Shown: in pieces, positions 6,985-51,832 of the stretch | Position numbering within the stretch: the stretch's first letter is position 1 | How the letters are laid out: the number at the start of each line of letters is the position of its first letter | Assembly: GCA_017960525.1 (NCBI GenBank) | Contig: JAGCZA010000022.1 | Coordinates: 1-61,756 of the forward strand | DNA from: Prevotella sp. | GTDB taxonomy: Bacteria > Bacteroidota > Bacteroidia > Bacteroidales > Bacteroidaceae | DNA: 61,756 nucleotides | Reading direction: 5' to 3' | The notes under the pieces: generated by a model | What the model was told of the DNA's origin: nothing | What the model saw: the letters and a program-made list of their open reading frames with translations, nothing else | Database searches by the model: none | Made by a program: the position numbers and the translations under genes

Positions 6985-7065
6985 AAAGGTTCGTCCTAAC
7001 TCGCAGTTTGGTTCGTCCAAACTCCCACTTTGGTTCGTCCAAACTCATAGTTTGGTTCGTCCAAA
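6985..7065 (+). repeat. 22-bp periodic array A (quasi-palindrome TTTGGTTCGTCCAAA)
   Basis: Three perfect copies of TTTGGTTCGTCCAAA are at 7007-7021, 7029-7043 and 7051-7065. A degenerate copy in phase is at 6985-6999 (AAAGGTTCGTCCTAA). The 7-base spacers are CTCGCAG, CTCCCAC and CTCATAG, so every start is 22 bp apart. Each core has TTTGG/CCAAA arms around 5 bases. It sits in the 315-bp divergent spacer (6896-7210) between the GNAT gene and the ABC operon, upstream of the ABC promoter. Apart from the two promoters and this array the spacer shows nothing else. Confidence 0.92.
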
Positions 7066-7121
7066 TTTTGAGCCTGATTTTTCCCCCAATTGTTAATACT
7101 TGGTTAAAACCTGGAAAAAGC

Positions 7122-7152
7122 TTGGTGGGAAGTCTGGAATTGCCTACCTTTG
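7122..7152 (+). promoter_or_regulatory. Promoter of the GntR-ABC operon
   Basis: TTGG at 7122 and TACCTTTG at 7145-7152 are about 20 bases apart. The -33 side reads TTGGTGGG, shared with other promoters in the window. The leader to the ATG at 7211 is about 50 nt. Confidence 0.7.
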
Positions 7153-7210
7153 CGGTGTGCTATTATACTATTACACATAAACACTATAGTTTTAACTACA
7201 CGAGAATGAT

Positions 7211-8029
7211 ATGATAGACGTAAACAACATCAGTTTCAGCTACCCGCACCAGAAGGAGCGGGTGTTTGACGGATTCAGCCTCAAACTGGAAGAAAACAAG
7301 ATTTACGGGCTGCTGGGCAAGAACGGGACAGGAAAGTCGACCCTGCTGTACCTCATCGCCGGCCTATTGCGGCCCAAGACGGGTACAGTATGTTGCGATG
7401 GCATCGCAACCTACGAGCGAAGGGCGGAGACGCTGGCGGAGATATTCCTTGTGCCAGAGGAGTTCGACCTGCCCTCGATGACACTGAAACGGTACGTGGA
7501 ACTGAACGCGCCGTTCTACCCCCGCTTCAGCCAGGAACGGCTGGAAGCCTGTCTGAGTGACTTCGAACTGGAGACAGACCTGCAATTGCACGCGCTGTCG
7601 ATGGGCCAGAAGAAGAAAGTGTTCATGTCTTTCGCCCTGGCCACGAACACGCGCCTGCTGCTGATGGACGAACCGACCAACGGGCTGGACATCCCCTCGA
7701 AAAGCCAGTTCCGCAAGACGGTGGCACAGAACATGAGCGAGGAGCAGACCATCATCATCTCCACCCACCAGGTGCACGATGTGGAGGCCCTGCTCGACCA
7801 TATCCTGATGCTGAACCAGCGGCAGCTGCTGCTTAACGCCTCTGTGCAGGAGATTATGGAGAAATATGTCTTCGAGTATCGACTGCCGACGGAAATGGAC
7901 AACGTGCTCTATGCCGAGCCGACGCTGCAAGGCAATGCCGTGATGGCCCTCCGGCAGGAAGGCCAGGCCGAGACACAGGTGAATCTGGAACTATTGTTTA
8001 ACGCTGTAACAAAAGGAGTTGTAAAATGA
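7211..8029 (+). CDS. ABC transporter ATP-binding protein
   Basis: The 272-residue ATPase has Walker A GLLGKNGTGKSTLL (~31-44), an unusual signature LSMGQKKKVFMSF and Walker B LLLMDEPTNGLD. It resembles the YtrB/CcmA-like ATPases paired with YtrA-family GntR regulators. It starts at ATG 7211 and overlaps the permease gene by ATGA (8026-8029). The GntR gene lies at the operon end instead of the usual first position. The substrate is unknown. Confidence 0.92.
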   Translation: MIDVNNISFSYPHQKERVFDGFSLKLEENKIYGLLGKNGTGKSTLLYLIAGLLRPKTGTVCCDGIATYERRAETLAEIFLVPEEFDLPSMTLKRYVELNAPFYPRFSQERLEACLSDFELETDLQLHALSMGQKKKVFMSFALATNTRLLLMDEPTNGLDIPSKSQFRKTVAQNMSEEQTIIISTHQVHDVEALLDHILMLNQRQLLLNASVQEIMEKYVFEYRLPTEMDNVLYAEPTLQGNAVMALRQEGQAETQVNLELLFNAVTKGVVK

Positions 8030-8829
8030 AAAACTTTGATACAAAACGTTTCGGCCACGTGCTGAAACTTGACTTTGCCGAAGGGCTTAAACCGATGCTG
8101 TGGGGCGCACTCGCCATAACGCTGCTCTATCTGTTCTTCTTCTGGTTTGCCCATAACATTGCCTACGATTCGAGTTGGTACAACAGTCATCCCGAAAAAT
8201 TCTCCCTAAGAGTCTGCGAGGCAGTAGGCGGTTTCAGTACGATTGCCATGCTCTTTTACTTCCTCATTGCCGCCAGCATACTCTACCGCAACGAGCAGAA
8301 GAAGCAGCAGCGCATCGCATGGCTGATGCTGCCCGCCACGAATCTGGAGAAATTCCTGTCAAGATGGCTCTATCTGGTGGCCTTTTCGCTCGTGGGCGGT
8401 TTGCTGACATTCTTCGTGACCGACGCGATACACATGGTGTGGCTATGGTTGGGCGGCAAGCCCGTGATGGCCGCCACGCCCTTCTTCTTCCACACGCTGC
8501 CACACCCAGACAAATACAATCATTTGCTGAGAATCATTGTCGTATACGGAATGATGGTGACCATCCACGCCTTCTTCCTTATGGGCAGTTTGCTGTTCAA
8601 GAAGTATCACTTCATCGTCTCCTCCGCATTGTTTGTCCTGTTCTTTACTGTGATGGCCAGCCTTTACAACACTTCTGGCCTCTATATGTTCAACAGTGAA
8701 TTGTCCAACAGAATCTTCGACATCGTTATGATAGTCCTGGAAACGGGTGCTATCATCCTCTTCACCTGGCTTGCCTATCGTTTGTTCTGCCGCTGGCAGG
8801 TTGTAACCCATAAATTCGTGAACGTATGA
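8026..8829 (+). CDS. ABC transporter membrane protein
   Basis: The 267-residue hydrophobic protein has about six transmembrane segments (for example MLWGALAITLLYLFFFWF and TIAMLFYFLIAASILY). It is the likely permease for the ATPase encoded just before it; the coding sequences overlap by 4 bases at both ends (8026-8029 and 8826-8829). It contains a cytoplasmic basic stretch RNEQKKQQRIAWLMLPA, common in ABC-2-like permeases of Bacteroidetes. The transported molecule is not apparent. Confidence 0.82.
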   Translation: MKNFDTKRFGHVLKLDFAEGLKPMLWGALAITLLYLFFFWFAHNIAYDSSWYNSHPEKFSLRVCEAVGGFSTIAMLFYFLIAASILYRNEQKKQQRIAWLMLPATNLEKFLSRWLYLVAFSLVGGLLTFFVTDAIHMVWLWLGGKPVMAATPFFFHTLPHPDKYNHLLRIIVVYGMMVTIHAFFLMGSLLFKKYHFIVSSALFVLFFTVMASLYNTSGLYMFNSELSNRIFDIVMIVLETGAIILFTWLAYRLFCRWQVVTHKFVNV

Positions 8830-9191
8830 ACTTCAATTCCGACAAAGCAATATTCTTGCAGATGGCCGACAGGCTGTGTGACGAGATTCTGGCGGGAACG
8901 TACAAGGACGACGACCGCGTCCCCAGCATCCGCGAGTACGCCGTGCTGCTCGAGGTGAACACGAACACGGCCGTCAAGGCCTACGAGGAACTCTCTCGTG
9001 CGAACATTATATATAATAAGCGGGGACTGGGCTACTTTGTGACGCCAGGAGCGAAGCAGCAAATACTGACGGAGCGCAAGCAAACGTTTATGAAAGAGCA
9101 GCTGCCAGAACTGTTCCGCCAGATGCGTCTGCTCGGCATCACGTTAGAAGATGTTAAAGTTGCCCACGATATGCAACAATTGCGGCCCTAA
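8826..9191 (+). CDS. GntR-family regulator (YtrA subfamily)
   Basis: The 121-residue regulator carries an N-terminal winged helix-turn-helix (residues ~1-70: IFLQMADRLCDEILAGTY, then RVPSIREYAVLLEVNTNTAV) and a short helical tail. This is the compact YtrA architecture. Such proteins repress their own ABC operon in response to cell-envelope or antibiotic stress. It overlaps the permease gene by ATGA. A macB-like operon starts 54 bases downstream, so it may influence both. Confidence 0.9.
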   Translation: MNFNSDKAIFLQMADRLCDEILAGTYKDDDRVPSIREYAVLLEVNTNTAVKAYEELSRANIIYNKRGLGYFVTPGAKQQILTERKQTFMKEQLPELFRQMRLLGITLEDVKVAHDMQQLRP

Positions 9192-9245
9192 TAGCGTCTA
9201 ACGAATAAACCATAAATCGAAAATCAGTAAATCGAAAATATCACC

Positions 9246-9905
9246 GTGATCCACTTAGAAGACGTAAACAAGACTTACTACGGGGCGCAGCCACTGCACG
9301 TGCTGAAAGGCATCAACCTCGACATCGAGAAGGGCGAGTTCGTCTCGATTATGGGCGCCTCAGGCTCAGGGAAGTCAACGCTGCTGAACATCCTCGGCAT
9401 CCTCGATAATTACGACTCCGGCCTTTACGAACTGGCGGGTGTCCGCATCTGGAACCTGTCGGAGCGCAAGGCGGCCGACTACCGCAACCGCATGATTGGC
9501 TTCATTTTCCAGTCGTTCAACCTCATTTCGTTCAAGACCGCCGTCGAGAACGTGGAGTTGCCGCTGTTCTACCAAGGCGTGAGCCGCCGCAAGCGCCACA
9601 CCCTGGCTCTGGAATATCTGGAACGCTTGGGGCTCCTGGACTGGGCGACCCACTATCCGAATGAACTCTCCGGCGGCCAGCGCCAGCGCGTCGCCATCGC
9701 CAGGGCGCTCATCACCAACCCCAAAATCATCCTCGCCGACGAACCCACGGGCGCCCTCGACTCGAAGACGAGTGTGGAGGTGATGCAGTTGCTGAAACAA
9801 CTGAACGCCGACGAAGGCATGACCCAGATTATCGTCACCCACGACCCGACGGTGGCCGAACAGACCAAACGCATCATACGTATCAAGGATGGAGTTATTG
9901 AATGA
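9246..9905 (+). CDS. MacB/LolD-type ABC transporter ATPase
   Basis: The 219-residue ATPase has Walker A GASGSGKSTLLN, Q-loop FIFQSFNL, signature LSGGQRQRVAIARAL and Walker B ILADEPTGALDS. This is typical of the MacB/LolD/FtsE subfamily, which drives mechanotransmission rather than transmembrane substrate passage. The start is GTG at 9246; no better ATG lies nearby. It overlaps the following permease gene by 17 bases. The context (two FtsX-like permeases, membrane fusion protein, outer-membrane factor) indicates export across the envelope. Confidence 0.93.
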   Translation: MIHLEDVNKTYYGAQPLHVLKGINLDIEKGEFVSIMGASGSGKSTLLNILGILDNYDSGLYELAGVRIWNLSERKAADYRNRMIGFIFQSFNLISFKTAVENVELPLFYQGVSRRKRHTLALEYLERLGLLDWATHYPNELSGGQRQRVAIARALITNPKIILADEPTGALDSKTSVEVMQLLKQLNADEGMTQIIVTHDPTVAEQTKRIIRIKDGVIE

Positions 9906-11145
9906 AATCTGGCAGACGGCGCGGCGCAACAAACTGCGTACCACGCTCACGGGTTTCGCCGTGGCGTGGGGCATCTTTATGCTCATCGTCCTGCTGGGCG
10001 CCGGCAATGGCCTGATTAACGCAAACCTCAAGCAGAGCGACCGCTTCCTCAACAGTTCAATGGTGGTGTTTGGCGGTTGGACGTCGAAGGCTTACCAGGG
10101 CCTGAAGGAGGGTCGTGACATCCGTCTGCACGAGCGCGACATGGAGATTACGGCCACAGAATTCACCCAGAACGTCGACGAGGTGGGTGCGCAGTACAAC
10201 ACCAGCGCAACCATCAGCCTGGGCCAACAGTACATCTCGTCGACCATCAGCGGCGTCTATCCGAACCATACAAAGATTAACAAGGTGTCCATACTGTATG
10301 GCCGCTTCATCAACGACATCGACATACGCGAAAGCCGCAAGGTGCTCGTGCTCGGCAACAAGCAGGCGCAGGAGCTGCTGGGCGGCAAGGGCGCAGACCG
10401 TCTCGTAGGGCGGTTTGTGAACGTCGGTTCGCTGGCGTTCAGAGTTGTTGGCATCTACAAGGAGAACGAGAACGGGCGTGCCGACATCTTCGGCAGCTAC
10501 ACGGCCATCAAGCGCATCTACGGAGCAAACACCGACGACATCGGGCGTTTGGAGTTCACCTTCCACGGCCTGCCGACGGAGGAGGCCAACGAGGCTTTCG
10601 AGACAAAATACCGCCACCGCCTCAATGCTGAACACCAGGCGCACCCCGACGATGAGGATGCCGTCTGGCTGTGGAACCGCTTCACACAGAACCTGCAGAT
10701 GGAGCAGGGCATCGGCATCATCCGCACCGCCCTCTGGATCATCGGCCTCTTCACGCTGCTGAGTGGCATCGTCGGCGTGTCGAACATCATGCTTATCACC
10801 GTGAAGGAGCGCACCCATGAGTTCGGCATCCGAAAGGCCATCGGCGCACGCCCGTGGTCCATCCTGAGGCTCATCATCGTGGAGAGCGTCATCATCACCA
10901 CCTTCTTCGGCTATATCGGGATGGTGCTCGGCGTAGCGGCCAACGAATATATGGACGCGACCATCGGCCACGAGACGATAGACACCGGCCTCTTCCGCGC
11001 CACCATGTTCCTCGACCCCACCGTCGGACTCGACGTCTGCTTCGAGGCAACGATGGTGATGATTATCGCCGGCACCATCGCCGGACTCATCCCCGCCTAC
11101 AAGGCATCGCGCATACGTCCCATTGAAGCATTAAGAGCAGAATAA
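9889..11145 (+). CDS. MacB-like FtsX-family permease, first
   Basis: The 418-residue protein has an N-terminal membrane helix, a large periplasmic MacB_PCD-like domain (~50-280) and three C-terminal transmembrane helices (FtsX domain with GVSNIMLITVKERTHEFGIR). The ATG at 9889 overlaps the ATPase gene. A paralogous permease follows 3 bases after the stop, so the transporter core is probably a heterodimer served by one ATPase. Confidence 0.9.
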   Translation: MELLNEIWQTARRNKLRTTLTGFAVAWGIFMLIVLLGAGNGLINANLKQSDRFLNSSMVVFGGWTSKAYQGLKEGRDIRLHERDMEITATEFTQNVDEVGAQYNTSATISLGQQYISSTISGVYPNHTKINKVSILYGRFINDIDIRESRKVLVLGNKQAQELLGGKGADRLVGRFVNVGSLAFRVVGIYKENENGRADIFGSYTAIKRIYGANTDDIGRLEFTFHGLPTEEANEAFETKYRHRLNAEHQAHPDDEDAVWLWNRFTQNLQMEQGIGIIRTALWIIGLFTLLSGIVGVSNIMLITVKERTHEFGIRKAIGARPWSILRLIIVESVIITTFFGYIGMVLGVAANEYMDATIGHETIDTGLFRATMFLDPTVGLDVCFEATMVMIIAGTIAGLIPAYKASRIRPIEALRAE

Positions 11146-11148
11146 GCC

Positions 11149-12396
11149 ATGAGAATAGACATTGACAGCTACCGCGAGGTGCTCGACACCCTGACCCGCA
11201 ACAAGAGCCGCAGCTTCCTGACTGGTTTCGGCGTGTTCTGGGGCGTGTTCATGCTCGTCGCATTGATGGGCGGCGGCGCCGGACTGAAGGAACTGCTCGA
11301 ACAGAACTTCGCAGGTTTCGCCACCAATAGTGCCATGGTCTGGGCACAGCCCACAAGCAAGGCGTACAAAGGCTTCCGCAAGGGCCGCTACTGGTATATG
11401 GACTACAAGGATGTCGACCGCATCCGCCGTAGCGTCCCAGAACTCGACGTCGTCACACCTATACTCTTCAGCAACGGCGGCACCGCTTACTACGGCGACC
11501 GGAAGTCTTCGGTAGGCGTTACAGGTGCTATGCCCGACTTCCGCCGCGTCAACGAACCAAAGATGTACTATGGCCGCTTTATCGACGAGGCCGACATCCG
11601 CGACCACCGCAAAGTCTGCGTCATCCAGAAGAAGACCTACAAGGAACTGTTCCCTGGCGGCGGCGACCCCTGCGGCAAGCGCATCCGCATCGACAACATC
11701 TACTACCAAATCGTCGGTGTCGACTACAATATGGGTGAAGGCATCAACTTCAGCGGCGAGACCGGCACAGGTGTCACCCTGCCGCTCACCTTTATGCAAC
11801 AGGCCTACAGCCGTGGCAATGCCGTCGATATGATTGCCGTCACGGGCCGAAAAGGGGTGGTTATGTCGAGTATCACCGACCGTATTCGTGAGACCATCGC
11901 CCGTGCCCATACCATCGACCCCACCGACGAGCAGGGCGCAATGGTGTTCAATACCGAAGTGCTCTTCCAACTGCTCGACAACCTGTTCCGAGGGGTCAAC
12001 TTCCTCATCTGGCTGGTCGGTCTTGGCACACTTTTGGCCGGTTCCATCGGTGTGTCGAACATTATGATGGTCACCGTCCGCGAGCGCACCACCGAGATTG
12101 GCATCCGCCGCGCCATTGGCGCCACGCCGCGCAACATCCTTGGCCAGATCATCTCAGAAAGCATTGTCCTCACACTGGTCGCAGGAATGAGCGGCATCCT
12201 CTTCGCCGTCCTCATCCTGCAGATGCTGGAACTGGCAAATACCGAGGACGGCATCCTCGCCGCCCATTTCCAGGTGGGCTTCTGGACGGCCATCATCGCC
12301 GCGCTCCTGGTCAGCGCTATGGGCGTCATCGCCGGCCTCGCCCCCGCAGCCCGGGCTATGTCGATAAAGCCTGTCGATGCTATGAGAGACGAGTAG
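11149..12396 (+). CDS. MacB-like FtsX-family permease, second
   Basis: The 415-residue paralogue of the preceding gene has the same layout: TM1 (SFLTGFGVFWGVFMLVALMG), periplasmic domain, and FtsX block with GVSNIMMVTVRERTTEIGIR. With the preceding protein it likely forms an asymmetric permease pair. A 34-base spacer leads to the membrane fusion protein gene. Substrate candidates for this family include peptides, glycolipids and macrolide-like compounds; none can be chosen here. Confidence 0.9.
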   Translation: MRIDIDSYREVLDTLTRNKSRSFLTGFGVFWGVFMLVALMGGGAGLKELLEQNFAGFATNSAMVWAQPTSKAYKGFRKGRYWYMDYKDVDRIRRSVPELDVVTPILFSNGGTAYYGDRKSSVGVTGAMPDFRRVNEPKMYYGRFIDEADIRDHRKVCVIQKKTYKELFPGGGDPCGKRIRIDNIYYQIVGVDYNMGEGINFSGETGTGVTLPLTFMQQAYSRGNAVDMIAVTGRKGVVMSSITDRIRETIARAHTIDPTDEQGAMVFNTEVLFQLLDNLFRGVNFLIWLVGLGTLLAGSIGVSNIMMVTVRERTTEIGIRRAIGATPRNILGQIISESIVLTLVAGMSGILFAVLILQMLELANTEDGILAAHFQVGFWTAIIAALLVSAMGVIAGLAPAARAMSIKPVDAMRDE

Positions 12397-12430
12397 CAGA
12401 GTTAAAGATTTAGAGTTAAGAATAACAATT

Positions 12431-13552: not shown

Positions 13553-13555
13553 GCC

Positions 13556-14890: not shown

Positions 14891-14893
14891 ACG

Positions 14894-15613: not shown

Positions 15614-15634
15614 CGTTATGCTAATTCCTGCTGG

Positions 15635-16273: not shown

Positions 16274-16341
16274 CGTTTCTTCTTTTTGCTTAATCGTTCT
16301 CAGATTTGAGGCCAATTTGTGTTCATTATTGATTGATGGTG

Positions 16342-16349
16342 CAAAGATA
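16342..16349 (-). promoter_or_regulatory. -7 promoter element of the lipoprotein-trmH pair
   Basis: The minus-strand sequence TATCTTTG lies 69 bases upstream of the chosen start at 16273 and matches TAnnTTTG. The -33 element is weak. Confidence 0.45.
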
Positions 16350-16388
16350 GCACTTTTTCATAAAACAGAAAAGGAAATAGGCCGAAAT

Positions 16389-16420
16389 TTTGGTGGTTTC
16401 GGAAATAAGTTGTAACTTTG
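16389..16420 (+). promoter_or_regulatory. Promoter of the glycosyltransferase gene
   Basis: TTTG at 16389-16392 (within TTTTGGTGG) and TAACTTTG at 16413-16420 are separated by exactly 20 bases. The leader is about 27 nt. Confidence 0.75.
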
Positions 16421-16452
16421 CAAGCGGAATAACTGTAAAACAAAGTTAAGCC

Positions 16453-17286: not shown

Positions 17287-17287
17287 C

Positions 17288-17897: not shown

Positions 17898-18341
17898 ATG
17901 ATTGAGTATCTTATTCACAATTCCTGGCAGGTATGGGCCGTCATTGCCGTACTTTGCCTGATTATGGAACTTTCGTCGGGTGATTTTTTCATCATCTGCT
18001 TCTCCATCGGAGCCGTTGCGGCGGTCATCGGGGCTGCTGTGGGGCTGAGTGTCTATTGGCAGATTGCCGTCTTCGCGCTGTTCTCCTTGCTGGCCATCTT
18101 CACCGTCAGGCCTGTGGCCCTGCGCTGGCTGCACAAGAACGAACCCGACCGGCGGAGCAATGCCGACGCCCTGCTGGGCCGCACAGGTCGCGTGGTCGAA
18201 CCCATCCATGCTGGCAGGAACGGCTACGTGCAGATTGACGGCGATATGTGGAAGGCAGTAAGCAGCACGGACATTGCCGTCGGCACCACCGTGCGGGTGA
18301 TTGGCCGTGAGAGCACCATCATCACGGTGGAGCAATTGTAA
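17898..18341 (+). CDS. NfeD-family membrane protein
   Basis: This 147-residue short NfeD has about three transmembrane helices (residues ~10-70) and a C-terminal OB-fold (LLGRTGRVVEPIHAGRNGYV ... VIGRESTIITVEQL). NfeD proteins of this class are encoded next to SPFH/stomatin genes and are thought to modulate membrane microdomains with them. That arrangement is seen here with the SPFH gene 107 bases downstream. Array B lies between the two genes. Confidence 0.9.
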   Translation: MIEYLIHNSWQVWAVIAVLCLIMELSSGDFFIICFSIGAVAAVIGAAVGLSVYWQIAVFALFSLLAIFTVRPVALRWLHKNEPDRRSNADALLGRTGRVVEPIHAGRNGYVQIDGDMWKAVSSTDIAVGTTVRVIGRESTIITVEQL

Positions 18342-18362
18342 AGGGCCAAAGCGGCCCAAAAG

Positions 18363-18421
18363 TTTGGACGAACCAAACTCACACTTTGGACGAACCAAAC
18401 TCCTACTTTGGACGAACCAAA
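18363..18421 (+). repeat. 22-bp periodic array B (TTTGGACGAACCAAA)
   Basis: Three perfect copies of TTTGGACGAACCAAA (the reverse complement of array A's core) are at 18363-18377, 18385-18399 and 18407-18421, with spacers CTCACAC and CTCCTAC. It occupies most of the nfeD-SPFH gap. A short GGGCC/GGCCC hairpin (18343-18357) precedes it, so it could also affect transcription between the two genes. Confidence 0.92.
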
Positions 18422-18448
18422 CTCTGTATAACAAAATTTATCAAAACT

Positions 18449-30297: not shown

Positions 30298-30445
30298 TAT
30301 TTACAACATTATAATTAACGCGCCATCGCCCCGTTTTATTGCACGTAGCCCGCTTTTTAGGCCAGATAGGCTGTCGGAGCCAGAAGGTGGGTGCCGATGA
30401 AAAAGATGCGGAGATGGCAAAATGGCCATTAGGGCGGTTCAGAAG

Positions 30446-30504
30446 TTTGGACGAACCAAAGTCATAGTTTGGACGGAGCAAACTGGTAGTTTGGACGAAC
30501 CAAA
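30446..30504 (+). repeat. 22-bp periodic array C (TTTGGACGAACCAAA)
   Basis: The copies are at 30446-30460, 30468-30482 (TTTGGACGGAGCAAA, two changes) and 30490-30504, with spacers GTCATAG and CTGGTAG and a period of 22. The first spacer with its flanks forms near-perfect CCAAA..TTTGG arms as well, so hairpins could form in two registers. It lies about 150 bp upstream of sprA and 126 bp before the rightward promoter. Confidence 0.9.
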
Positions 30505-30629
30505 CTTTGGGGCTTGATTTTCACGATTTACAGGCACGAATTCCTGCAAAACACATCTTTTCAATTACCCCGATTCTTTGACTTTCATCAAAAATAGTGG
30601 CTGTTTCCGCACACAATGGGCAAAATCCT

Positions 30630-41501: not shown

Positions 41502-41637
41502 AAACTTCCCTACCCTCTCTCGTCGCTGTTTCATCTCGTTTGAGAGAATAAGAGAATCCACCGAGCCCATCTTTCGATGTCTCGGCGGATATGATGAATA
41601 CACATTTTGGGAACGAAGTCATTAGCGAAATGACAGG

Positions 41638-44600: not shown

Positions 44601-46392
44601 CAAAGTCCTGCCACTGGTCGGCGGTGGTGAAGTAAGTGCGAGTACCTTGTGCCACGGTTAGTGTGGCCTTTGTCAGGTCAATGCCCTCGAAGATACCGCT
44701 GCCCAAGGCTATGCTCTGTGGCTGGTAAGTTCTCAAGGTCACACTGGCCAGTTTGGCACAGTCCTTGAATGTGCCCTCGCCAATGGCGGTGACGGCTAAA
44801 GGAATTTCCATGGCGGTCAAAGCGGCACATCCCTCGAAGGTGCGCGCCTCGATGGCTCCCAACTCCTCTGGCAGCACAAGTCCGGCAAGCGCCTTGCAAC
44901 CGCTGAAGGCTTCCTCGCCAATGGCGGTCACACTATTAGGCAGAGACAACTGTGACAGTTTGGTACAGCCCTTGAACGCCCTGGCACCAATCGTCTTCAC
45001 GTTTTTCGACATCCTCACTGTGGTGAGCCGTGTGCACCCGTTGAAGGCATCATCGGAAATGTTGGTCAGGCTGGTAAAGTAGTAGAGTTCCTTGAACGTC
45101 TGGATGCTCTTCCCCTTGAAAACGTCGCCCAGCGAGGTTACAGCAGCAGCATCGTTGTAGGTGAACTTTCCGTCGCCGTCGACATCAAAATTGTTTTTGC
45201 ACAAGTTCCTCACCGTTACATCGGCAATGCTCATGGCTTTGTCGCCATAGTTCTCCGGCTCCAGGCCGATGATGATTTGGCGTCCTTCGTTATAGCCGTC
45301 GCTGCTGCCGCCAATACCCTGTCCCTGGCCGGGGGTGAGGTTCGTCAGGTAGTAGTAGCCGTCGCTCTGTCCGCCCCAGCCCCAGTTGATGTGGTAACGC
45401 AGGTTGCCGTCGTAGCCGTCGGTGACAAAAGCATGGCCGCCACTATTGTTGTATCCGCTAAGGTAGACAGGCCGTCCGGCAGCCAACTCGGCATAAACGA
45501 TTTCATCCCACTCGGCATCGTCAGCGGCACTAGTCACGTAGCGTGTCGATGACCCGTAGCCGAAGTAAGTTTTAAAGGCTTCATAGGCATCGTACACTTG
45601 TGCGCCGGAGGAAGCGTTGGTATAGTCCATCTTTACCGCCACGCCGCAATAGTGCATCAGGTCGGCCACAGCCAGCCGTTGCAGATCGTTGGCCGAGCCG
45701 TAGCTGTCCTTCATATTATCCCAGTCGATAGGCGATCCGGCCGGGATGCCCTCCACGTGGAGCGTTCCGTAGGTGGGGTGCGACGTCCAGGTGTCGTAGG
45801 CGGGCATAGCGGCCTGCGTCTCAGTGACCGACTTCTCGCGATTGTAGTAGAGTATCTGCGCCATGGCCGTAGCCACACAACCCGTCACTGAGCGGCCCAG
45901 CGTGAAGTACTCCGGACAGGTGAGGTTGTAGGGGTAGCCCTGACTCCACGTGCTCTTCATCAACTGCTCCACCTTGGGATGGGTGGAGACGGCCACCTTG
46001 GCCGGTGCGGCCTGACGCGACTGTATGGCAGCAATCTGCGTAGCGTAGAAGTCGAGCCATTCGCGCATATTGGGAGGCAGGGCATCGTAGTCGAAAGTGC
46101 CCCGGTCAGTATAGCCCAGCACGTCGACGATGGTCTCGTCATCGCCCGAAACGATGACGTAGCCCTCGTCGCTGCCACGGTCGAAGACATAATAGGGTTC
46201 AACTGCCGAGGCACTGGGAGCCAATCGCTTTTGCCCCTTGGCAGGAGTGAGTTCTGCGGCTCCCGGCACTTGCTTCACAAAGAGCGAAGCCTTTTGGCGG
46301 GCCTGTTCGCGAGTGATTGGTTTGGCGAATGATGTCTGTGCCACCGTCATACAGAGCAGCAGAATAGCGGTAAACGACTTTGTGAGTTTCAT
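41638..46392 (-). CDS. C10 (streptopain-like) peptidase with BspA repeats, MBG and dockerin-like end
   Basis: The 1584-residue secreted modular protein starts at the ATG at 46392, which gives the signal peptide TAILLLCMTVAQTSFA. A SpeB-type propeptide (~24-140) precedes the C10 domain, which has catalytic Cys172 (SVTGCVATAMAQ), His320 (SGGHAFVTDGYDG) and HINWGWGGQSDGYY. EF-hand-like plus BspA-LRR modules then begin at DVDGDGKFTYND (~403), DINTDGEIGFAEA and DADGDGELTESEV. Two copies of a ~160-residue lectin-like domain (YIYNIGTGRYLTKGEAYGTQ; YLMNLATRKFLAKGEAYGTQ) are interleaved. MBG-like domains (YSREKGQQNPVFDFTFTGF) and a dockerin-like pair (DVNGDGVKNMGDV, DVNGDGQTDYADV) close it. No T9SS C-terminal domain is recognised. 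Confidence 0.92.
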   Translation of the reverse strand: MKLTKSFTAILLLCMTVAQTSFAKPITREQARQKASLFVKQVPGAAELTPAKGQKRLAPSASAVEPYYVFDRGSDEGYVIVSGDDETIVDVLGYTDRGTFDYDALPPNMREWLDFYATQIAAIQSRQAAPAKVAVSTHPKVEQLMKSTWSQGYPYNLTCPEYFTLGRSVTGCVATAMAQILYYNREKSVTETQAAMPAYDTWTSHPTYGTLHVEGIPAGSPIDWDNMKDSYGSANDLQRLAVADLMHYCGVAVKMDYTNASSGAQVYDAYEAFKTYFGYGSSTRYVTSAADDAEWDEIVYAELAAGRPVYLSGYNNSGGHAFVTDGYDGNLRYHINWGWGGQSDGYYYLTNLTPGQGQGIGGSSDGYNEGRQIIIGLEPENYGDKAMSIADVTVRNLCKNNFDVDGDGKFTYNDAAAVTSLGDVFKGKSIQTFKELYYFTSLTNISDDAFNGCTRLTTVRMSKNVKTIGARAFKGCTKLSQLSLPNSVTAIGEEAFSGCKALAGLVLPEELGAIEARTFEGCAALTAMEIPLAVTAIGEGTFKDCAKLASVTLRTYQPQSIALGSGIFEGIDLTKATLTVAQGTRTYFTTADQWQDFGTIRELRDRSGGKFAKLEKGKKYYIYNIGTGRYLTKGEAYGTQAIVGSEPMRFVFNRTSSMPEGSYYLTSEDTGNSGKYLFRTSTDSNVGNGVKATFVDGNSLSANAYWALAECEASTETQPVYTFQIPANGTGYEAGLYWGVQTDHQSGAASPTYGVYSDVDYESHKLNCQWSLVLYNEEASKRYDAASTLEQLLNIAHKRNLKVDDEQAVCDNLESTIEELKQALSSLRKKLNLIDFADDLVAATCRTEYDINTDGEIGFAEAAQIADFTSYFQGTNITSFDELQYFTNIPDIYGRTFDGCKKLTSVVLPKNITNIYYWAFRNCTSLTSINIPELVVLVGDDCFSNCKALRSVRVDSPDPSTIVLGSNVFSGVPLAECTLYVPFGSKEAYAAAPVWQDFGNIVEMRMKTHLQPSAIQANTPGYLMNLATRKFLAKGEAYGTQSVVAANGLLYQFKRTNSMADDTYYLYSDQASSEGKVLFRTDTDTKVGKGVKACFVDGTLSAKAYWQLDSVAEGPVYTLRVPGSADADNPFLGIDANHTSGVASPTYGTYWDVPSGTKASQWVFIAQEDMEGAKNLDNLAANLIELIGKANAEGIETHNEQAVYDNPASTAAQMEEAIATLRSKLHFITFADDKVRQMSVAAWDADGDGELTESEVAEVTDIGEIFRNNTTIKSFEELRYFTGLKAIPANAFSGCSGLVSIYIPEQVDTIFIGAFSRCYDLKYVALLNTSQPVCNKSSQIRGTMFVPAGMIDKYGETGQWSTVTFMPYTGKPVVTALSATREYGRTITPTQLKYTVTGAPVNGIPQLTCPEGLAAATPVGIYTIKLTPGTITNSSVEYGDSLLTITPATVTVKAKNYSREKGQQNPVFDFTFTGFRNKETSEVLLKQPMATCAATPVSPVGQYEISADGAEAENYEFVYTPGTLTVTESTRGDVNGDGVKNMGDVWAILQAVASATHSAAADVNGDGQTDYADVVTILNIIAAF

Positions 46393-46429
46393 AATAAATA
46401 GTGTAACAGTTTCAGGTTTCTTATGATAG

Positions 46430-46478
46430 AAAAAGGATGCCAGGCAAGGCCTTCTTGTGCGGCCGGCACCTGGCATCC
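46430..46478 (-). terminator. Intrinsic terminator of the rimP-nusA-infB operon
   Basis: On the minus strand GGATGCCAGG (46478-46469) pairs with CCTGGCATCC (46444-46435), with GGCC/GGCC pairing inside, and TTTTTCTA follows. It lies 14 bases after the infB stop. Confidence 0.9.
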
Positions 46479-46491
46479 TCGGATGACTATG

Positions 46492-49371
46492 CTACAGCGT
46501 CTGCTGCACCTCGATTTCCTGGAAGGTCTCGATGATGTCGCCCTGCTGGATATCGTTGAAGTTGACAAGCGAAATGCCGCACTCGAAGTTGGTGGCCACC
46601 TCCTTGACATCGTCCTTGAAGCGCTTGAGTGCATTGATGGAGCCGGTAAAGACGACGATACCGTCGCGGATGAGGCGGGCCTTGTCGGTGCGGTGCACCT
46701 TGCCCTCGGTGACCATAGCACCAGCCACGGTGCCGACCTTGGAAATCTTGAACACCTCGCGCACCTCAATCTGTCCGGTGACTTCTTCCTTGATGACCTT
46801 GTCGAGCATACCCTCCATTGTGGAGCGGACGTCCTCGATGGCATCGTAGATGATGCTGTAGGTGTTGATTTCCACACCCTCGGTGTCGGCCAGCTTGCGG
46901 GCCGCCGTCGACGGGCGCACCTGGAAGCCGATGATGATGGCATCGGAGGCGCCGGCCAGCGTGACGTCGTTCTCGGAAATCTGTCCCACGGCCTTGTGTA
47001 TGACATTGACCTTGATTTTCTCGGTGGAAAGCTTGATGAACGAGTCGCTGAGGGCCTCGATGGAGCCGTCGGTGTCGCCCTTGACGATAAGGTTGAGTTC
47101 CTTGAACTCGCCAAGTGCAATGCGGTGGCTGATGTCGGAGAGGGTGAGGCGCGTCTGTGTGCGCAGTCCCTGTTCGCGTGCCAACTGTTCGCGCTTGTTG
47201 GCAATCTCGCGAGCCTCCTGCTCGCTGTCCATCACGTGGAAAGCATCGCCGGCGGTAGGTGCGCCGTCGAGGCCGAGGATGATGGCCGGTTCGGCCGGCT
47301 TGGCCTCCTGGATGCGTGCACCACGCTCGTTGAACATTGCCTTGATGCGTCCGTGGCTCGTTCCTGCAATGACGACGTCACCCACACGGAGCGTACCGTT
47401 AGAAACGAGCACCGTTGAGACGTAGCCGCGACCCTTGTCAAGACTCGACTCGATGATGGAGCCAGTAGCCTTGCGGTTGGGGTTGGCCTTCAACTCCAGC
47501 ATTTCGGCTTCGAGCAGTACTTTCTCCAGCAACTCTTCCACGCCAACACCCTTCTTTGCCGAAATTTCCTGACACTGGTACTTGCCGCCCCAGTCTTCGA
47601 CCAAGAGGTTCATATTGGCCAGGTCCTCACGGATTTTGTCGGGATTGGCTCCGGGCTTGTCTATCTTGTTGATGGCAAAGACCATCGGCACGTTGGCGGC
47701 CTGTGCATGGGCGATGGCCTCCTTGGTGGTGGGCATGACGCTGTCGTCGGCAGCCACGATGATGATGGCGATATCGGTGACCTGTGCACCACGGGCACGC
47801 ATGGCCGTAAAGGCTTCGTGTCCAGGGGTGTCGAGGAACGTGATTTCGCGCCCGTCGGGCAGTTCCACATTGTAGGCGCCGATGTGCTGGGTGATGCCGC
47901 CTGCCTCACCGGCAATGACGTTGGTCTTACGGATATAGTCGAGGAGAGATGTCTTACCGTGGTCCACATGACCCATCACGGTCACGATGGGTGCGCGGGG
48001 CTGCAGGTCGTTCTCGTCGTCCTCGTCCTCCTGAATGGCGTTCTGCACTTCAGCCGATACGTATTCAGTGGTGAAGCCAAACTCCTCGGCCACGATATTG
48101 ATGGTCTCGGCCTCCAGGCGCTGGTTGATGCTGGCCATGATGCCAATAGCCATACAGGTGCTGATGACCTTGACCACGGGCACGTTCATCATCGTGGCCA
48201 ACTCTGACACGGTGACGAACTCGGTGAGCTTGAGCACCTTGCTCTTTGCTGCCTCGGCGGCCATCTCCTCAGAGAGTCGCTCGGCCACGGCGTCGCGCTT
48301 CTCCTTGCGATACTTGGCACCCTTCTTGTTGAGGGTGGTCTTCGAGGTCAGACGTGCGAGCGTCTCCTTGACCTGACGTGCCACATCCTCGTCGGTGCCC
48401 TCCAGCATCTTCACGGGCTGGCGGCCTTTCGTCTTCTGCTTCTTGCCTTGAGCCTGCTGCGGGTCGCTGAAGTTCTGGTTGCCACCCTTGTTCTTCTTCT
48501 TGCCCTGGCCCTGCTGCGGCTGTTGCTGCTGCTGGCGGGCTGCGGCCTCTATATCGACCTTTCCGGAGCGTATGCGCTCCCTCTTCTTCTTCTCACCGCC
48601 CTGGGCGTTGGAGCCGGCGCGCTGCTGTGCAGCCTTCTCTTCACGCTGTTTGCGCTTCTCTTCCTTCGATTTCTTCTTGGGCCTGGTGCTCTGGTTGATG
48701 GTGGAAAGGTCTATCTTGCCCAGCACGTTCACCTTCGGGGCCAGTTTGGCCTCGCTCTTGAGGGTGTAGATTTCCTTGACAGGAGCGGGAAGTTCCTGCT
48801 TGTCGTCAATATCGACAAACTCGTCAACGTCATCCTCCTGACCAGAAATGTCTTCAACATCCTTCTCGTCGTCGGGTTCGTCAACTGGAACATCTTCGAC
48901 CTTTGGGGCAACAGTAACCTCTGGGGCAGCAGGGGCCTTTGCGACCTCTGGCGTTTCTTCGACCTCTGGAGCAGCAACTTTAGTGCTCTTCTTTGAGGAC
49001 GAGGAGGGGGCTGGAGCCTCTGGGGCAGCAGGGGCAGCCTTTGGCTTGCCAATGGTGCCAAGGTCAATCTTGCCCAGCGGCTTGAACTGCTGGCGCTGGG
49101 CCATCTGCTCCTCGGTCTTGGTGACGGCCTTAGCCTCTTCGGTCTTTTTCTCCTTGGGCTTCTTGGCAAAGAGTTTTTCGGCCTGGGTCTTCACGGCCTT
49201 GTCGCCACTGAACTCCTGCACCAAGGCCTCGTACTGTTCGTCGGTGATCTTGGTGTTGGTAGTGGTGTCGTCGCGAATCTCGCCCAGACTGCTTTTCTTT
49301 TTCAGGAAATCAACTGCCGTTTGAAGTCCTATATTCAATTCTGTCAGTACTTTGTATAATCTTACGCCCAT
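46492..49371 (-). CDS. infB: Translation initiation factor IF-2
   Basis: The 959-residue protein starts at [15 protein letters not shown] (ATG 49371); the longer in-frame start at 49413 would translate the inverted-repeat element. A long charged, Lys/Glu/Pro-rich N-terminal region (~90-370) precedes the GTPase domain, with [14 protein letters not shown] (G1), [10 protein letters not shown] (G2), DTPGHEAF (G3), NKID (G4) and SAKKGVG (G5). Domains II-IV that bind fMet-tRNA follow. It is the last gene of rimP-nusA-infB. Confidence 0.97.
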
Positions 49372-49379
49372 TCTTTCTA

Positions 49380-49506
49380 AGCCCCCTAATTTGGGGGGTG
49401 GGGGTCTGAACATCCCCCGTTAAAGTTAAAAATATTTCTTCTGCTAATACCCTTCAGATAGGCTGGCTGGCTCGTTCAGACCCCCAACCCCCTAACTTAG
49501 GGGGCT
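49380..49506. repeat. REP-doublet-like inverted repeat element, copy 1
   Basis: The left arm (49380-49411, beginning AGCCCCCTAATTTGGGGGG) is the near-perfect reverse complement of the right arm (49474-49506, ending CCCCCTAACTTAGGGGGCT). 62 bp lie between them. Each arm itself contains a small CCCCCTAA/TTAGGGGG palindrome. It fills the nusA-infB gap and is transcribed in the operon mRNA. It resembles a REPIN, a REP doublet; the mobilising RAYT is not in this window. Confidence 0.85.
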
Positions 49507-49511
49507 AAGGA

Positions 49512-50771
49512 TTATTCAAACTCTGCCTTCAGCACTTCAAGCAGATGGTCTACGGTTTCCTCTTCCAGGTCGGCCTTCTCTATGAGCAGTTCACGTGGTG
49601 CATTGAGCACTTCGCGTGCGGTGTCGTAGCCAAGAGACTTGATGGCGTCGATGACCCACTGGTCTATCTCGTCGCTGAACTCGTCGAGATAGATGTCCTC
49701 GTCGTCCTCGCCTTCCTTCACCACACGGAACACGTCGATGGTGTACTCTGTCAGCATCGATGCAAGTTTGATGTTCATACCGCTCTTACCGATGGCGAGA
49801 CTCACCTCTTCAGGCTGCAGATAGACCTCGGCCTTGTGGTTCTCCTCGTCGAGGGTGATGCTCGTAATCTTAGCGGGCGACAATGCGCGCTGGATGAAGA
49901 GTTGCGTGTTGGTGGTATAGTTGATGACGTCGATGTTCTCGTTCTGCAACTCTCTCACAATGCCGTGCACACGCGAACCCTTCACGCCGACGCAAGCGCC
50001 TACAGGGTCGATGCGGTCGTCGAAACTCTCCACGGCCACCTTGGCCCTCTCGCCCGGCATACGGGCCACCTTGCGAATGGCAATGAGGCCGTCGTTGATT
50101 TCGGGCACCTCGGCCTCCATCAGCCTCTTGAGGAATTCGGGGCTGGTGCGCGAAAGCATAATGCGGGGGTTGTTGTTCTCGTTGTTCACCTCCTTCACAA
50201 TGGCGCGGATGGTCTCGCCCTTGCGGTAATTGTCGCTGGGAATCTGGTCGCCCTTGAGCAGATGCAGTTCATTGCCCTCATCGTCCATCAGGAGCACTTC
50301 ACGCTTCCACATCTGGTAGACCTCGCCACTGACGATGGTGCCCACGCGATCCTTGTACTTCTGGTAAAGGGCATCGTGGTCCAACTCCAGAATCTTCGAG
50401 GCCAGCGTCTGGCGGAGGTTCAGGATGGCGCGGCGTCCGAACTTGGTGAAGTCGACAGCCTCGCTCACATTCTCGCCCACCTCATAGTCGGGCTCTATCT
50501 TCAGGGCCTCGGAGAGTGCTATCTCCTTGTTCTCGTCCTGCACATCGCCATCCTCGACAACGGTGCGGTGGCGGTGAATCTCAAAGTCACCCTTGTCGGG
50601 ATTGACAATCACGTCGAAGTTCTCGTCGGAGCCGAAAATCTTGGCCAGCACGTTGCGGAAACTCTCTTCAAGCACGCTCACGAGCGTGGTGCGGTCGATG
50701 TTCTTCGTCTCTTTGAACTCCTGGAAGGTCTCAAACATACTTGGACCATTCGCTTGTTTTTTTGTTGCCAT
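49512..50771 (-). CDS. nusA: Transcription termination/antitermination factor NusA
   Basis: The 419-residue protein has an N-terminal RNA polymerase-binding domain (MFETFQEFKETKNID onward), an S1 domain (~130-200) and KH1/KH2 domains (GVKGSRVHGIVRELQNENID; IGKSGMNIKLASMLTEYTID). A short C-terminal acidic tail lacks the extra AR domains of E. coli. It regulates pausing, termination and rRNA antitermination. It is flanked on both sides by REP-like elements within the operon. Confidence 0.97.
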   Translation of the reverse strand: MATKKQANGPSMFETFQEFKETKNIDRTTLVSVLEESFRNVLAKIFGSDENFDVIVNPDKGDFEIHRHRTVVEDGDVQDENKEIALSEALKIEPDYEVGENVSEAVDFTKFGRRAILNLRQTLASKILELDHDALYQKYKDRVGTIVSGEVYQMWKREVLLMDDEGNELHLLKGDQIPSDNYRKGETIRAIVKEVNNENNNPRIMLSRTSPEFLKRLMEAEVPEINDGLIAIRKVARMPGERAKVAVESFDDRIDPVGACVGVKGSRVHGIVRELQNENIDVINYTTNTQLFIQRALSPAKITSITLDEENHKAEVYLQPEEVSLAIGKSGMNIKLASMLTEYTIDVFRVVKEGEDDEDIYLDEFSDEIDQWVIDAIKSLGYDTAREVLNAPRELLIEKADLEEETVDHLLEVLKAEFE

Positions 50772-50779
50772 CTTGTCTG

Positions 50780-50975
50780 AGCCCCCTAAGTTTGGGGGTT
50801 GGGGGTCTGAACACCCCCCTTTAGTTAATAATGTAATTTGTCTGAGCCCCCTAAGTTAGGGGGTTGGGGGTTTGAACACCCCATTTTATTAATAATGGAT
50901 TATCAATATTATTTTTGCACCCTAAGATAGGCTGGTTGGTTCGTTCAGACCCCCAACCCCCTAACTTAGGGGGCT
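50780..50975. repeat. REP-doublet-like inverted repeat element, copy 2
   Basis: Two tandem left arms (50780-50812 and 50845-50877, 65 bp apart) face one right arm (50943-50975). The right arm and its left flank (GATAGGCTGG onward, from 50927) match copy 1 almost exactly. The element fills the rimP-nusA gap, ending 3 bp from the rimP stop codon. The duplicated arm distinguishes it from copy 1. Confidence 0.88.
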
Positions 50976-50978
50976 AAA

Positions 50979-51446
50979 TTATTTAAAGTTGAGCAGATAC
51001 TTTGTCGACTTCACCTCGTCCATAGAGAACTGCTTGTCGACGTCCACCTTTACGGGGCGCTTCTTGCCTTCGGGCACTTGCTTCTCCTGGGTGGTGACCA
51101 CAAACTGCCGGCCGTCCACAGCCTTGAGCAGGCCCGTCACCTTCTTGCCCTCGGCATCGACCACCTCCACCTGGTCACCCACGTGGCACTCATACTGCTG
51201 GGCCACCTTGAAGGGCTGCCCCAGGCCGGCAGAGCCGACCTCCAGTTCATAGTCGCCCAACTCGTCGCCAAGGCGCTCTTGCAGGAAACGGCTTAGTGTG
51301 GCACAGTCTTCCACCCATACACCGTCGGCATGGTCAATCTCAATGACGATGCGGTCATCGTCTGTCATTTGGATGTCTACAAGGAAATAGTCGCCCCCCT
51401 GGAGCCACTCTTCCACCAATTGCTTAACATTCTCTTTTGTTATCAT
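50979..51446 (-). CDS. rimP: Ribosome maturation factor RimP
   Basis: This 155-residue RimP has an N-terminal alpha/beta domain (DYFLVDIQMTDDDRIVIEID, then GVWVEDCATLSRFLQERLG) and a C-terminal SH3-like domain (QQYECHVGDQVEVVDAEGKK). It assists 30S subunit assembly. It is the first gene of the rimP-nusA-infB operon, with a consensus promoter at 51542-51511 and a hairpin followed by five U residues in the leader. Confidence 0.95.
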   Translation of the reverse strand: MITKENVKQLVEEWLQGGDYFLVDIQMTDDDRIVIEIDHADGVWVEDCATLSRFLQERLGDELGDYELEVGSAGLGQPFKVAQQYECHVGDQVEVVDAEGKKVTGLLKAVDGRQFVVTTQEKQVPEGKKRPVKVDVDKQFSMDEVKSTKYLLNFK

Positions 51447-51462
51447 CAGTAACTGTTTTTAT

Positions 51463-51495
51463 AAAAAGATGAGGGACTTTCGAGAAGCCCCTCAT
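51463..51495 (-). terminator. Attenuator-like hairpin in the rimP leader
   Basis: On the minus strand the arms 51495-51485 and 51479-51469 form an 11-position stem with one mismatch and the loop CTCGA. After one C, TTTTT follows. It lies between the promoter (51511-51542) and the rimP ATG (51446), where a terminator would make transcription of the operon conditional. Confidence 0.65.
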
Positions 51496-51510
51496 TCCAC
51501 TGAACGGGTG

Positions 51511-51542
51511 CAAAGGTACGACTTTTCCCCGAACTGGCCAAA
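51511..51542 (-). promoter_or_regulatory. Promoter of the rimP-nusA-infB operon
   Basis: The minus strand has TTTG (51542-51539), 20 bases, then TACCTTTG (51518-51511), a full consensus. The leader is about 60 nt. Confidence 0.8.
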
Positions 51543-51773
51543 CTTTTCTCTCATTATTTTCATTTTTCCGTGAAAATAGTGACGATTCAGATCTCACCTC
51601 CGAGGCAGAACTTACATTATATCTGTCGTTATTGTAGGATAACCACCAACTCGCATACCGCCCCACGCCTCCTTTTGGTTGTCATTAGAATTGAATAGGA
51701 GATTTTTTGCAACGATACGACAAATTTCCCGAACCGCCAAACAATTCTGGGGGGGGAATAACGGGGTTCGGAG

Positions 51774-51832
51774 TTTGGTTCGTCCAAACTACGGGTTTGG
51801 TTCGTCCAAAGTGGGAGTTTGGTTCGTCCAAA
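51774..51832 (+). repeat. 22-bp periodic array D (TTTGGTTCGTCCAAA)
   Basis: Three perfect copies are at 51774-51788, 51796-51810 and 51818-51832, with spacers CTACGGG and GTGGGAG and a period of 22. The array ends 3 bases from the DUF5686 stop codon, so it lies in that gene's 3' untranslated region and downstream of its operon. Confidence 0.92.

What the first reader, a model, noticed from the sequence alone, without database searches (positions are those of the whole stretch)
6985..51832. Four dispersed intergenic arrays with an exact 22-bp period
Arrays A (6985-7065), B (18363-18421), C (30446-30504) and D (51774-51832) each hold three or four copies of TTTGGTTCGTCCAAA or its complement. 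All spacers are 7 bases, so the period is 22 bp at every locus. The core is an imperfect palindrome (TTTGG/CCAAA), and several spacers extend pairing the other way, as in CCAAACT-cat-AGTTTGG. Spacer ends are constrained while middles vary. All four lie in non-coding DNA beside unrelated genes. After the last unit, A and C share similar text ending TGATTTT. The fixed spacing of about two helical turns suggests cooperative binding of one protein to one DNA face, or a folded RNA, rather than random slippage. I do not recognise the family.
Basis: seen in the sequence. Interest (0 to 1): 0.8.

Follow-up and report, generated by a model that had tools for sequence, protein, structure and literature searches.

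The report
Dispersed 22-base-pair mini-arrays in Prevotella
A rumen-type gut bacterium carries about a hundred tiny non-coding DNA arrays, each usually three or four copies of a 22-base-pair unit, kept well apart along the chromosome, and related species hold arrays of the same build with different letters; they look like an unusual miniature mobile element.

Summary
The four arrays are exact (12 core units; 0.08 expected). The genome holds at least 111 such arrays. In the 578 kb read, 74 arrays have 3 (39), 4 (29), 5 (3) or 2 (3) units at 22 bp, and no unit stands alone. Both flanks carry the same degenerate inverted end, about (C/T)TTTtAGGCcGcTTT, which explains the 'TGATTTT' text of A and C. 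Arrays rarely lie within 10 kb of each other (2 of 42 gaps, 17.2 expected). Some congeners carry the same comb with other letters. In sister genomes with array regions 83-95% identical, arrays stay in place while content is often rewritten. One empty site was found. No association with Y1 transposases, RNA pairing avoided, no predicted curvature. Best reading: a MITE-like non-coding element whose two-turn sites bind an unidentified species-specific protein, with transposition-immunity-like exclusion. Main rival: chromosome-organising sites.

The parts
6985..7065 (+). Array A: four 15-bp units (first degenerate), 7-bp spacers CTCGCAG, CTCCCAC, CTCATAG
6963..6984 (+). Left end segment of A (poor match to the end matrix, score -2.5)
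   Evidence: boundary inferred
7066..7087 (+). Right end segment of A, TTTTGAGCCTGATTTTTCCCCC (score 13.6)
   Evidence: boundary inferred
18363..18421 (-). Array B: three exact units, spacers GTAGGAG and GTGTGAG (read on -)
18341..18362 (-). Right end (read on -) of B, CTTTTGGGCCGCTTTGGCCCTT (score 11.7); touches the stop codon of the upstream NfeD-like gene
   Evidence: boundary inferred
18422..18443 (-). Left end (read on -) of B (poor match, score -4.2)
   Evidence: boundary inferred
30446..30504 (-). Array C: three units, the middle one TTTGCTCCGTCCAAA, a core type of sister species
30424..30445 (-). Right end (read on -) of C, CTTCTGAACCGCCCTAATGGCC (score 3.7); the same 22 bp end an array at an unrelated locus in G406 (L082)
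30505..30526 (-). Left end of C; read outward it is CTTTGGGGCTTGATTTTCACGA (score 9.2)
   Evidence: boundary inferred
51774..51832 (+). Array D: three exact units, spacers CTACGGG and GTGGGAG, ending 3 bp from the end of the DUF5686 gene
51752..51773 (+). Left end segment of D (score 9.9)
   Evidence: boundary inferred
51833..51854 (+). Right end segment of D (score 3.4); overlaps the last codons of the neighbouring gene
   Evidence: boundary inferred

Best explanation
Each array is one copy of a short (about 81-147 bp), non-coding, MITE-like dispersed element. Its body is 2-5, normally 3 or 4, directly repeated sites of 22 bp, each spanning two helical turns (core TTTGG-N5-CCAAA plus a 7-bp spacer). 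On both sides stands a degenerate terminal segment of about 17-22 bp in inverted orientation. The sites most likely bind an unidentified, species-specific DNA-binding protein, probably a transposase-like one supplied in trans. Copies settle in gaps between genes of any arrangement, in either orientation, in co-directional gaps mostly nearer the upstream stop codon. A new copy is rarely tolerated within about 10 kb of an old one; I read this as cis-acting exclusion like the target immunity of Mu/Tn7-type systems. Once in place, arrays persist while their units and spacers are rewritten by exchange with other arrays, so each species homogenises its own core. SHOWN: sequence anatomy, copy number, inverted ends, exclusion, rewriting, one empty site. 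INFERRED: protein binding, mobility in trans, immunity as the cause of exclusion, exchange as the cause of rewriting.
For: At least 111 array loci on 62 contigs. The 74 arrays read have 2-5 units at exactly 22 bp, and none of 239 units with at most 2 mismatches lacks a partner at 22 bp. Left and right ends share a consensus when read outward: column correlation 0.86, against 0.07 +- 0.14 and a maximum of 0.50 in 2,000 permutations; left ends score +3.7 on the right-end matrix against -6.9 for distal flank. Conservation falls to near background beyond about 22 bp. Window C and L082 share the terminal 22 bp, although the two stretches show no DNA similarity outside array and end. Empty site: L056 has an 81-bp array between a DapB and a signal-peptidase (Peptidase_S26) gene, where L154 has 6 bp between stop and start. 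Exclusion: 2 of 42 gaps under 10 kb against 17.2 +- 2.8 expected, 0 of 20,000 simulations as low; a smaller zone in a G186 stretch. Core replacement: L147 mixes two core types; L140 has three units of another core where L072 has its own. Printed precedent for 3 and 4 transposase sites of 22 bp in Tn7 ends and for target immunity: passages of PMC8649781 and PMC11406308.
Against: No target-site duplication at any fixed pair of offsets. No autonomous partner or transposase was seen at the two spots looked at: the closest own pair (5.4 kb) encloses two non-transposase genes, and 2.6 kb of extra DNA next to array L137 is a GH115 hydrolase gene. The 22-bp unit is a near palindrome, unlike what I recall of Mu/Tn7 sites. 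Target immunity does not explain rewriting in place. The two ends of one element do not co-vary, and of the eight window ends two match the end matrix poorly. Only one clean empty site was seen. In a G186 stretch the smallest gap is about 4.3 kb, not 10. Some sister arrays are nearly unchanged (L074/L081).
Confidence: 0.48

Rival explanations
1. Chromosome-organising sites: arrays are bound by a nucleoid or domain-boundary protein and are kept at a minimum spacing by selection; their core drifts together with the protein.
For: Mutual exclusion; placement in all gap classes without orientation preference; persistence at 12 compared orthologous loci in sister genomes although content is often rewritten; one site (L133/L144) also holds an array in L152 at about 71-75% DNA identity; similar combs in other species of the genus.
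Against: At the two loci compared with more distant species the array position is not kept (array A gene in 7 printed relatives; L072/L102); inverted ends and an end shared at unrelated loci look like a mobile element; 276 of 398 genomes of the genus lack the comb at the threshold used.
Confidence: 0.25
2. REP/BIME-like palindromes moved by a REP-associated tyrosine transposase (RAYT, Y1 family).
For: Short, mostly intergenic imperfect palindromes, over a hundred loci, either orientation; no target duplication; the own genome and sisters G165 and G416 do have Y1_Tnp hits (1, 1 and 2).
Against: Y1_Tnp hits in 12 of 30 array-bearing (7 of these 30 chosen for the reversed comb) and 15 of 30 array-free genomes; none in array-rich G186, G229, G143, G407, G392. 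No lone units, direct rather than inverted repetition.
Confidence: 0.07
3. RNA-level elements: tandem hairpins acting as terminators or mRNA stabilisers.
For: Each core and many spacers are dyads; co-directional arrays lie nearer the upstream stop codon (35 of 40); some G165/G416 arrays have fully complementary spacers.
Against: Both orientations are used; adjacent spacers avoid complementarity in G000 (0 perfect of 106 against 3.1 expected); real arrays fold less stably than arrays with swapped spacers (-35.1 against -37.1 +- 0.36); 19 of 74 arrays lie between divergent genes; no Rfam match in the window.
Confidence: 0.06
4. Ordinary minisatellites produced by replication slippage.
For: 9 exact neighbouring spacer repeats against 3.7 expected; unit number differs by one in 4 of 12 compared sister loci.
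Against: Same unit at 111 loci, no lone units in the stretches read, 2-5 copies, shared inverted ends, mutual exclusion.
Confidence: 0.04
5. Operator arrays of one transcription-factor regulon.
For: Dyad sites at two-turn spacing.
Against: In co-directional gaps arrays lie on the stop side rather than the promoter side, they sit between close co-directional genes and, in sisters, inside an outer-membrane efflux protein frame.
Confidence: 0.03
6. Intrinsically curved phased A-tract clusters.
For: AAA/TTT triplets alternate 10 and 12 bp apart, and combs of this kind occur in other species of the genus.
Against: Wedge-model curvature of arrays 0.033, random genomic 0.032, dinucleotide shuffles 0.055 (parameters recalled); a phased A5 control gave 0.296. 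Exact core letters would not be needed.
Confidence: 0.03

Closest known systems
BrickBuilt MITE of Porphyromonas gingivalis (PMC4596501, passages read)
   Same: Same bacterial order (my knowledge); intergenic, dispersed, non-coding, direct repeats of nearly the same length (23 nt), terminal inverted repeats, unit number varies between strains.
   Different: BrickBuilt has 1 to 22.8 repeats, leaders up to 285 and tails up to 318 nt, and 19 loci in one strain; here 2-5 repeats, ends of about 22 bp, at least 111 loci, a near-palindromic unit, other cores in other species, mutual exclusion.
Ends of Tn7-like (and Mu, IS21) transposons
   Same: Several transposase-binding sites per end, 22 bp in Tn7, three left and four right (PMC8649781, PMC11406308, passages); IS21 ends have at least two repeats (PMC11208146, passages); target immunity inhibits a second nearby insertion.
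   Different: No transposase, cargo, target duplication or paired opposite ends seen here; the unit is a near palindrome and the array stands alone.
REP/BIME elements
   Same: Short intergenic palindromes, hundreds of units, species-specific (recalled).
   Different: No lone units in the stretches read, fixed 22-bp direct arrays, no association with Y1 transposases.
Phased A-tract clusters
   Same: A/T runs in phase with the helix (start of the abstract of PMC3940949 seen in the listing).
   Different: Exact repeated words, discrete elements with ends, no predicted curvature.
CRISPR arrays
   Same: Repeat-spacer look.
   Different: Spacers are 7 bp, drawn from a small vocabulary shared between loci (66 words among 180), dispersed over 111 loci.

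Membership tests
MITE (miniature inverted-repeat transposable element) | Short, non-coding, many dispersed copies | tested here: met
   At least 111 loci; array body 37-103 bp
MITE (miniature inverted-repeat transposable element) | Terminal inverted repeats | tested here: met
   Degenerate, 17-22 bp; correlation 0.86 between left and right ends over all ends; left and right of one copy do not co-vary
MITE (miniature inverted-repeat transposable element) | Target-site duplication | tested here: not met
   No fixed-offset direct repeat above shuffle, k = 4-6, 72 arrays
MITE (miniature inverted-repeat transposable element) | Empty sites in relatives | tested here: inconclusive
   One good case, L056 against L154
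MITE (miniature inverted-repeat transposable element) | Autonomous parent with the same ends | not tested
BrickBuilt | 23-nt repeat with long leader and tail | tested here: not met
   22 bp; conservation fades about 22 bp outside the array
REP/BIME | Association with RAYT (Y1 transposase) | tested here: not met
   12 of 30 array-bearing against 15 of 30 array-free genomes; the own genome has one hit
REP/BIME | Singlet and inverted-pair units | tested here: not met
   No lone unit among 239; direct arrays; 7 of 74 contain an inverted unit
Tn7/Mu/IS21 transposon end | Three or four about 22-bp sites in an end | tested here: met
   68 of 74 arrays have 3 or 4 units of 22 bp
Tn7/Mu/IS21 transposon end | Element with two such ends and DDE transposase plus AAA+ ATPase | not tested
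Tn7/Mu/IS21 transposon end | Target immunity | tested here: inconclusive
   Spacing fits but the cause is not shown
CRISPR | Unique spacers of about 20-40 bp | tested here: not met
   7-bp recurring spacers
Structured RNA | Selected base pairing | tested here: not met
   Complementarity avoided in G000; not avoided in G165/G416

The most novel reading that the evidence does not exclude
The arrays form a chromosome-wide grid of protein-binding sites held at a minimum spacing, whose recognition sequence is swept genome-wide within each Prevotella species by an active copying process. They could be a bacterial counterpart of fast-evolving centromere-like satellites, or they could make the whole chromosome immune to a Mu/Tn7-type transposon by mimicking its transposase-binding ends.
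Probability: 0.2. Interest if true: 0.93.

Novelty: new variant of a known kind. Interest (0 to 1): 0.68.

Why it matters
The family shows three things that I do not know together in another bacterial repeat: a strictly phased multi-site body, a measurable exclusion zone between copies, and rewriting of the repeat letters between sister genomes at loci that are kept. If a cognate protein is found, it would show how a DNA-binding specificity and several hundred sites change together in a bacterium. If the exclusion is target immunity, it gives a natural genome-wide record of that process.

Tried and rejected
RNA fold: rejected as the selected feature. Outer stem between flanks: no pairing beyond chance (all |z| at most 1.1). 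REP/RAYT: no association. IS21 next to array L137: the extra 2.6 kb is a GH115 gene. Autonomous element between the closest pair of arrays: a pyruvate-formate-lyase-like gene and a 903-aa protein without a Pfam match over cut-off. Curvature: none by a recalled wedge model. Phage, plasmid or viral origin: no match in viral contigs with three patterns, and none for array A in the plasmid and phage collections. Rfam: none in the window. Literature: no paper of the held library holds the four letter strings tried. Five topic searches listed no paper that I recognised as this family. One search gave BrickBuilt. Absence from print is claimed only for these searches. Comparison of the array A locus with relatives said little, because gene order differs. 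Spacer complementarity in G165/G416 is slightly above, not below, chance (12 against 7.5 +- 2.6 pairs), so the avoidance seen in G000 is not general. Corrected on checking: my notebook (entry 9) named the genes beside the L056 array rsmH- and ftsL-like from their letters; Pfam shows DapB and Peptidase_S26. Notebook entry 2 called L082 an ortholog of array C; one search shows that only array and end match.
Full report
1. Observation. The four arrays are present as described. Twelve core units with at most 2 mismatches are found in the window, against 0.08 expected. A has a fourth, degenerate first unit; the middle unit of C is TTTGCTCCGTCCAAA.

2. Extent in the genome. The window is contig 98 of a 3.97-Mb, 146-contig assembly. 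A two-unit pattern TTTGG-N5-CCAAA at 22-bp period occurs 172 times, and 0 times for the reversed pattern. Splitting the pattern by spacer letter gave all places with an exact unit followed by TTTGG (203 rows). With two arrays that lack such a pair added (C18:7976, window C), this makes 111 arrays on 62 contigs. Arrays without an exact pair elsewhere in the genome are missed, so 111 is a lower bound. I read 578 kb around arrays, window included, of the 3.97 Mb. The 74 arrays in it have 3 (39), 4 (29), 5 (3) or 2 (3) units. Of 239 units with at most 2 mismatches there, none lacks a partner at 22 bp. These stretches were chosen for holding a pair; lone units in the rest of the genome were not looked for. 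One of the two-unit arrays (L068) is cut by a contig end. Seven of 74 arrays contain a unit in the opposite orientation.

3. Spacers. Among 180 spacers in own arrays there are 66 distinct words, against 118 +- 3 when columns are shuffled. Words occur in both orientations (CTATGAC/GTCATAG, CTCCCAC/GTGGGAG). Outer letters are C..G 119, G..G 32, C..C 24, other 5, and G..C 0. Neighbouring spacers avoid complementarity: 0 of 106 perfect against 3.1 expected, and 3 against 10.1 with 6 or more of 7. Exact repeats of a neighbour are in excess, 9 against 3.7. Swapping spacers between arrays makes predicted RNA more stable, -37.1 +- 0.36 against the real -35.1 kcal/mol. Pairing is therefore avoided here, not selected. 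In the sisters G165 and G416 this avoidance is absent (12 pairs against 7.5 +- 2.6 expected).

4. Ends. Information in the flanks falls to near background beyond about 22 bp on each side (72 arrays). Read outward, left and right ends share the consensus (C/T)TTTtAGGCcGcTTT; column correlation is 0.86 against a permutation maximum of 0.50. The 'TGATTTT' text of A and C is such an end; relative to the core it stands on opposite sides in the two arrays. Window C and an array in genome G406 (L082) share 22 identical bp of end sequence; outside array and end no DNA similarity between L082 and the window was found, and L082 lies beside an arginyl-tRNA synthetase gene. No fixed target duplication was found. 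Left and right ends of one element do not co-vary.

5. Gene context. With a simple codon-based gene finder of my own, 40 of 74 arrays lie between co-directional genes, 19 between divergent and 4 between convergent genes; 4 overlap a predicted frame and 7 have a neighbour on one side only. This roughly follows the share of intergenic DNA in the same stretches (58%, 39%, 3%). In co-directional gaps 35 of 40 arrays are nearer the upstream stop than the next start. Array B lies between NfeD and Band_7 genes, C next to SprA, D between DUF5686 and RimP, A between a GNAT and an ABC ATPase gene.

6. Mutual exclusion. Of 49 same-contig gaps, 2 are under 10 kb (5.4 and 9.2 kb) and 14 lie between 10.4 and 13.1 kb. 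On the 42 contigs of known length (84 arrays, 42 gaps), 17.2 +- 2.8 gaps under 10 kb are expected and 2 are seen; none of 20,000 simulations reached so few, the lowest being 7. By hand count, with three mixed arrays left out, neighbours have the same orientation in 20 and opposite in 26 cases; among gaps up to 13.1 kb, 10 and 5. Loss of close direct repeats is therefore not the obvious cause. In 400 kb of G186, 23 merged elements have a smallest gap of 4.3 kb (P = 0.002); one AT-rich comb row, 235 bp from an element, was left out, and counting it would break the result. Six gaps there lie between 5 and 9 kb, so a 10-kb zone does not hold in G186.

7. Genus. The exact core pair with up to 2 mismatches occurs in 4 of 398 genomes, own genome included; the strict two-unit pattern occurs in 1 of 60, the own one. 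A looser three-unit comb TTTG-N7-CAAA at 22 bp with up to 3 mismatches occurs in 122 of 398. Some of these are plainly other tandem repeats (for example G191), and the reversed control also matches in a number of genomes (211 in G392), so 122 is not a clean count. Cores differ by species, for example TTTGGAGGCTTCAAA, TTTGCTCCGGGCAAA and AAAGTTGAACTTT. In G186 the comb lies inside a longer, roughly 215-bp element with a 15-bp direct repeat, ATTGTTCTATTTTTC, near both ends (12 copies aligned). Named relatives are Prevotella MAGs from roe deer rumen and reticulum and RUG13180; matching them to handles rests on equal contig lengths.

8. Evolution in sisters. 13 of 14 fetched G165 array loci pair with a G416 locus at 83-95% DNA identity; L073 found no partner among the fetched loci, and in L138 no array of three units was detected (a two-unit match 156 bp from the contig start), so L130/L138 was not compared. 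In the 12 comparable pairs the array is kept. Unit number is equal in 8 and differs by one in 4. Content is often rewritten: L070/L076 share none of three spacers although the right flank is nearly identical over 60 bp; L140 has three units of another core where L072 has its own; L131/L080 keep two spacers but differ in the cores between them; L127/L136 lose homology of one flank at the array. L074/L081 differ in only one spacer letter, a result against uniformly fast rewriting. L147 mixes two core types in one array. An outer-membrane efflux protein gene (PF02321) carries an array inside its reading frame in L133 and L144, and its relative L152 does so with another core.

9. Insertion. L056, an array between a DapB and a Peptidase_S26 gene, faces an array-free gap of 6 bp in L154. 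This is one case.

10. Rivals. Y1 transposases are no commoner in array-bearing than in array-free genomes, 12 of 30 against 15 of 30, though the own genome has one. Curvature is not raised by a recalled wedge model. No match was found in the phage, plasmid and viral collections with the queries used.

11. Reading. Inverted ends, dispersed copies and an empty site make a miniature non-autonomous mobile element the best class. Three or four 22-bp sites plus an exclusion zone resemble the transposase-site arrays and target immunity of Tn7-type elements (passages of PMC8649781 and PMC11406308; passages of PMC11208146 for IS21); the kilobase range of such immunity is recalled, not read. Missing are a target duplication, a transposase and an autonomous copy. 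The chromosome-organising rival remains open. BrickBuilt of P. gingivalis (passages of PMC4596501) is the nearest printed relative in build that I found.

Noticed in passing
window 61193-61756: Another tandem array of 66/132-bp period runs to the window end (TRF); unrelated to the 22-bp family as far as seen.
   Followed up: no
window 50773-50897: A 65-bp unit repeated almost twice, containing a CCCCCTAAGTTAGGGGG palindrome.
   Followed up: no
L039 3360-3420, L054 2180-2216, L104 4044-4070: Units of a different core (TTATATACCTTCTAA, TTATATGCCTTCTAA, TTAGATGCCTTATAA) stand in register next to 22-bp arrays, perhaps remains of an older core.
   Followed up: partly
G186 C1:2560001-2960000 (L182-L201): A roughly 215-bp interspersed element with 15-bp direct repeats ATTGTTCTATTTTTC near both ends surrounds the comb in this species.
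   Followed up: partly
L133 1058-1116, L144 2971-3029, L152 1970-2028: Arrays inside an outer-membrane efflux protein reading frame (PF02321 for L133 and L152), translated in frame into species-different peptides.
   Followed up: partly
L068 end, L089 start, L093 end, L106 start, L043 start, L069 end: Several contigs of the own assembly end within 300 bp of an array; L068 and L089 share 248 bp of flank and L093 resembles them over the first 60 bp.
   Followed up: partly
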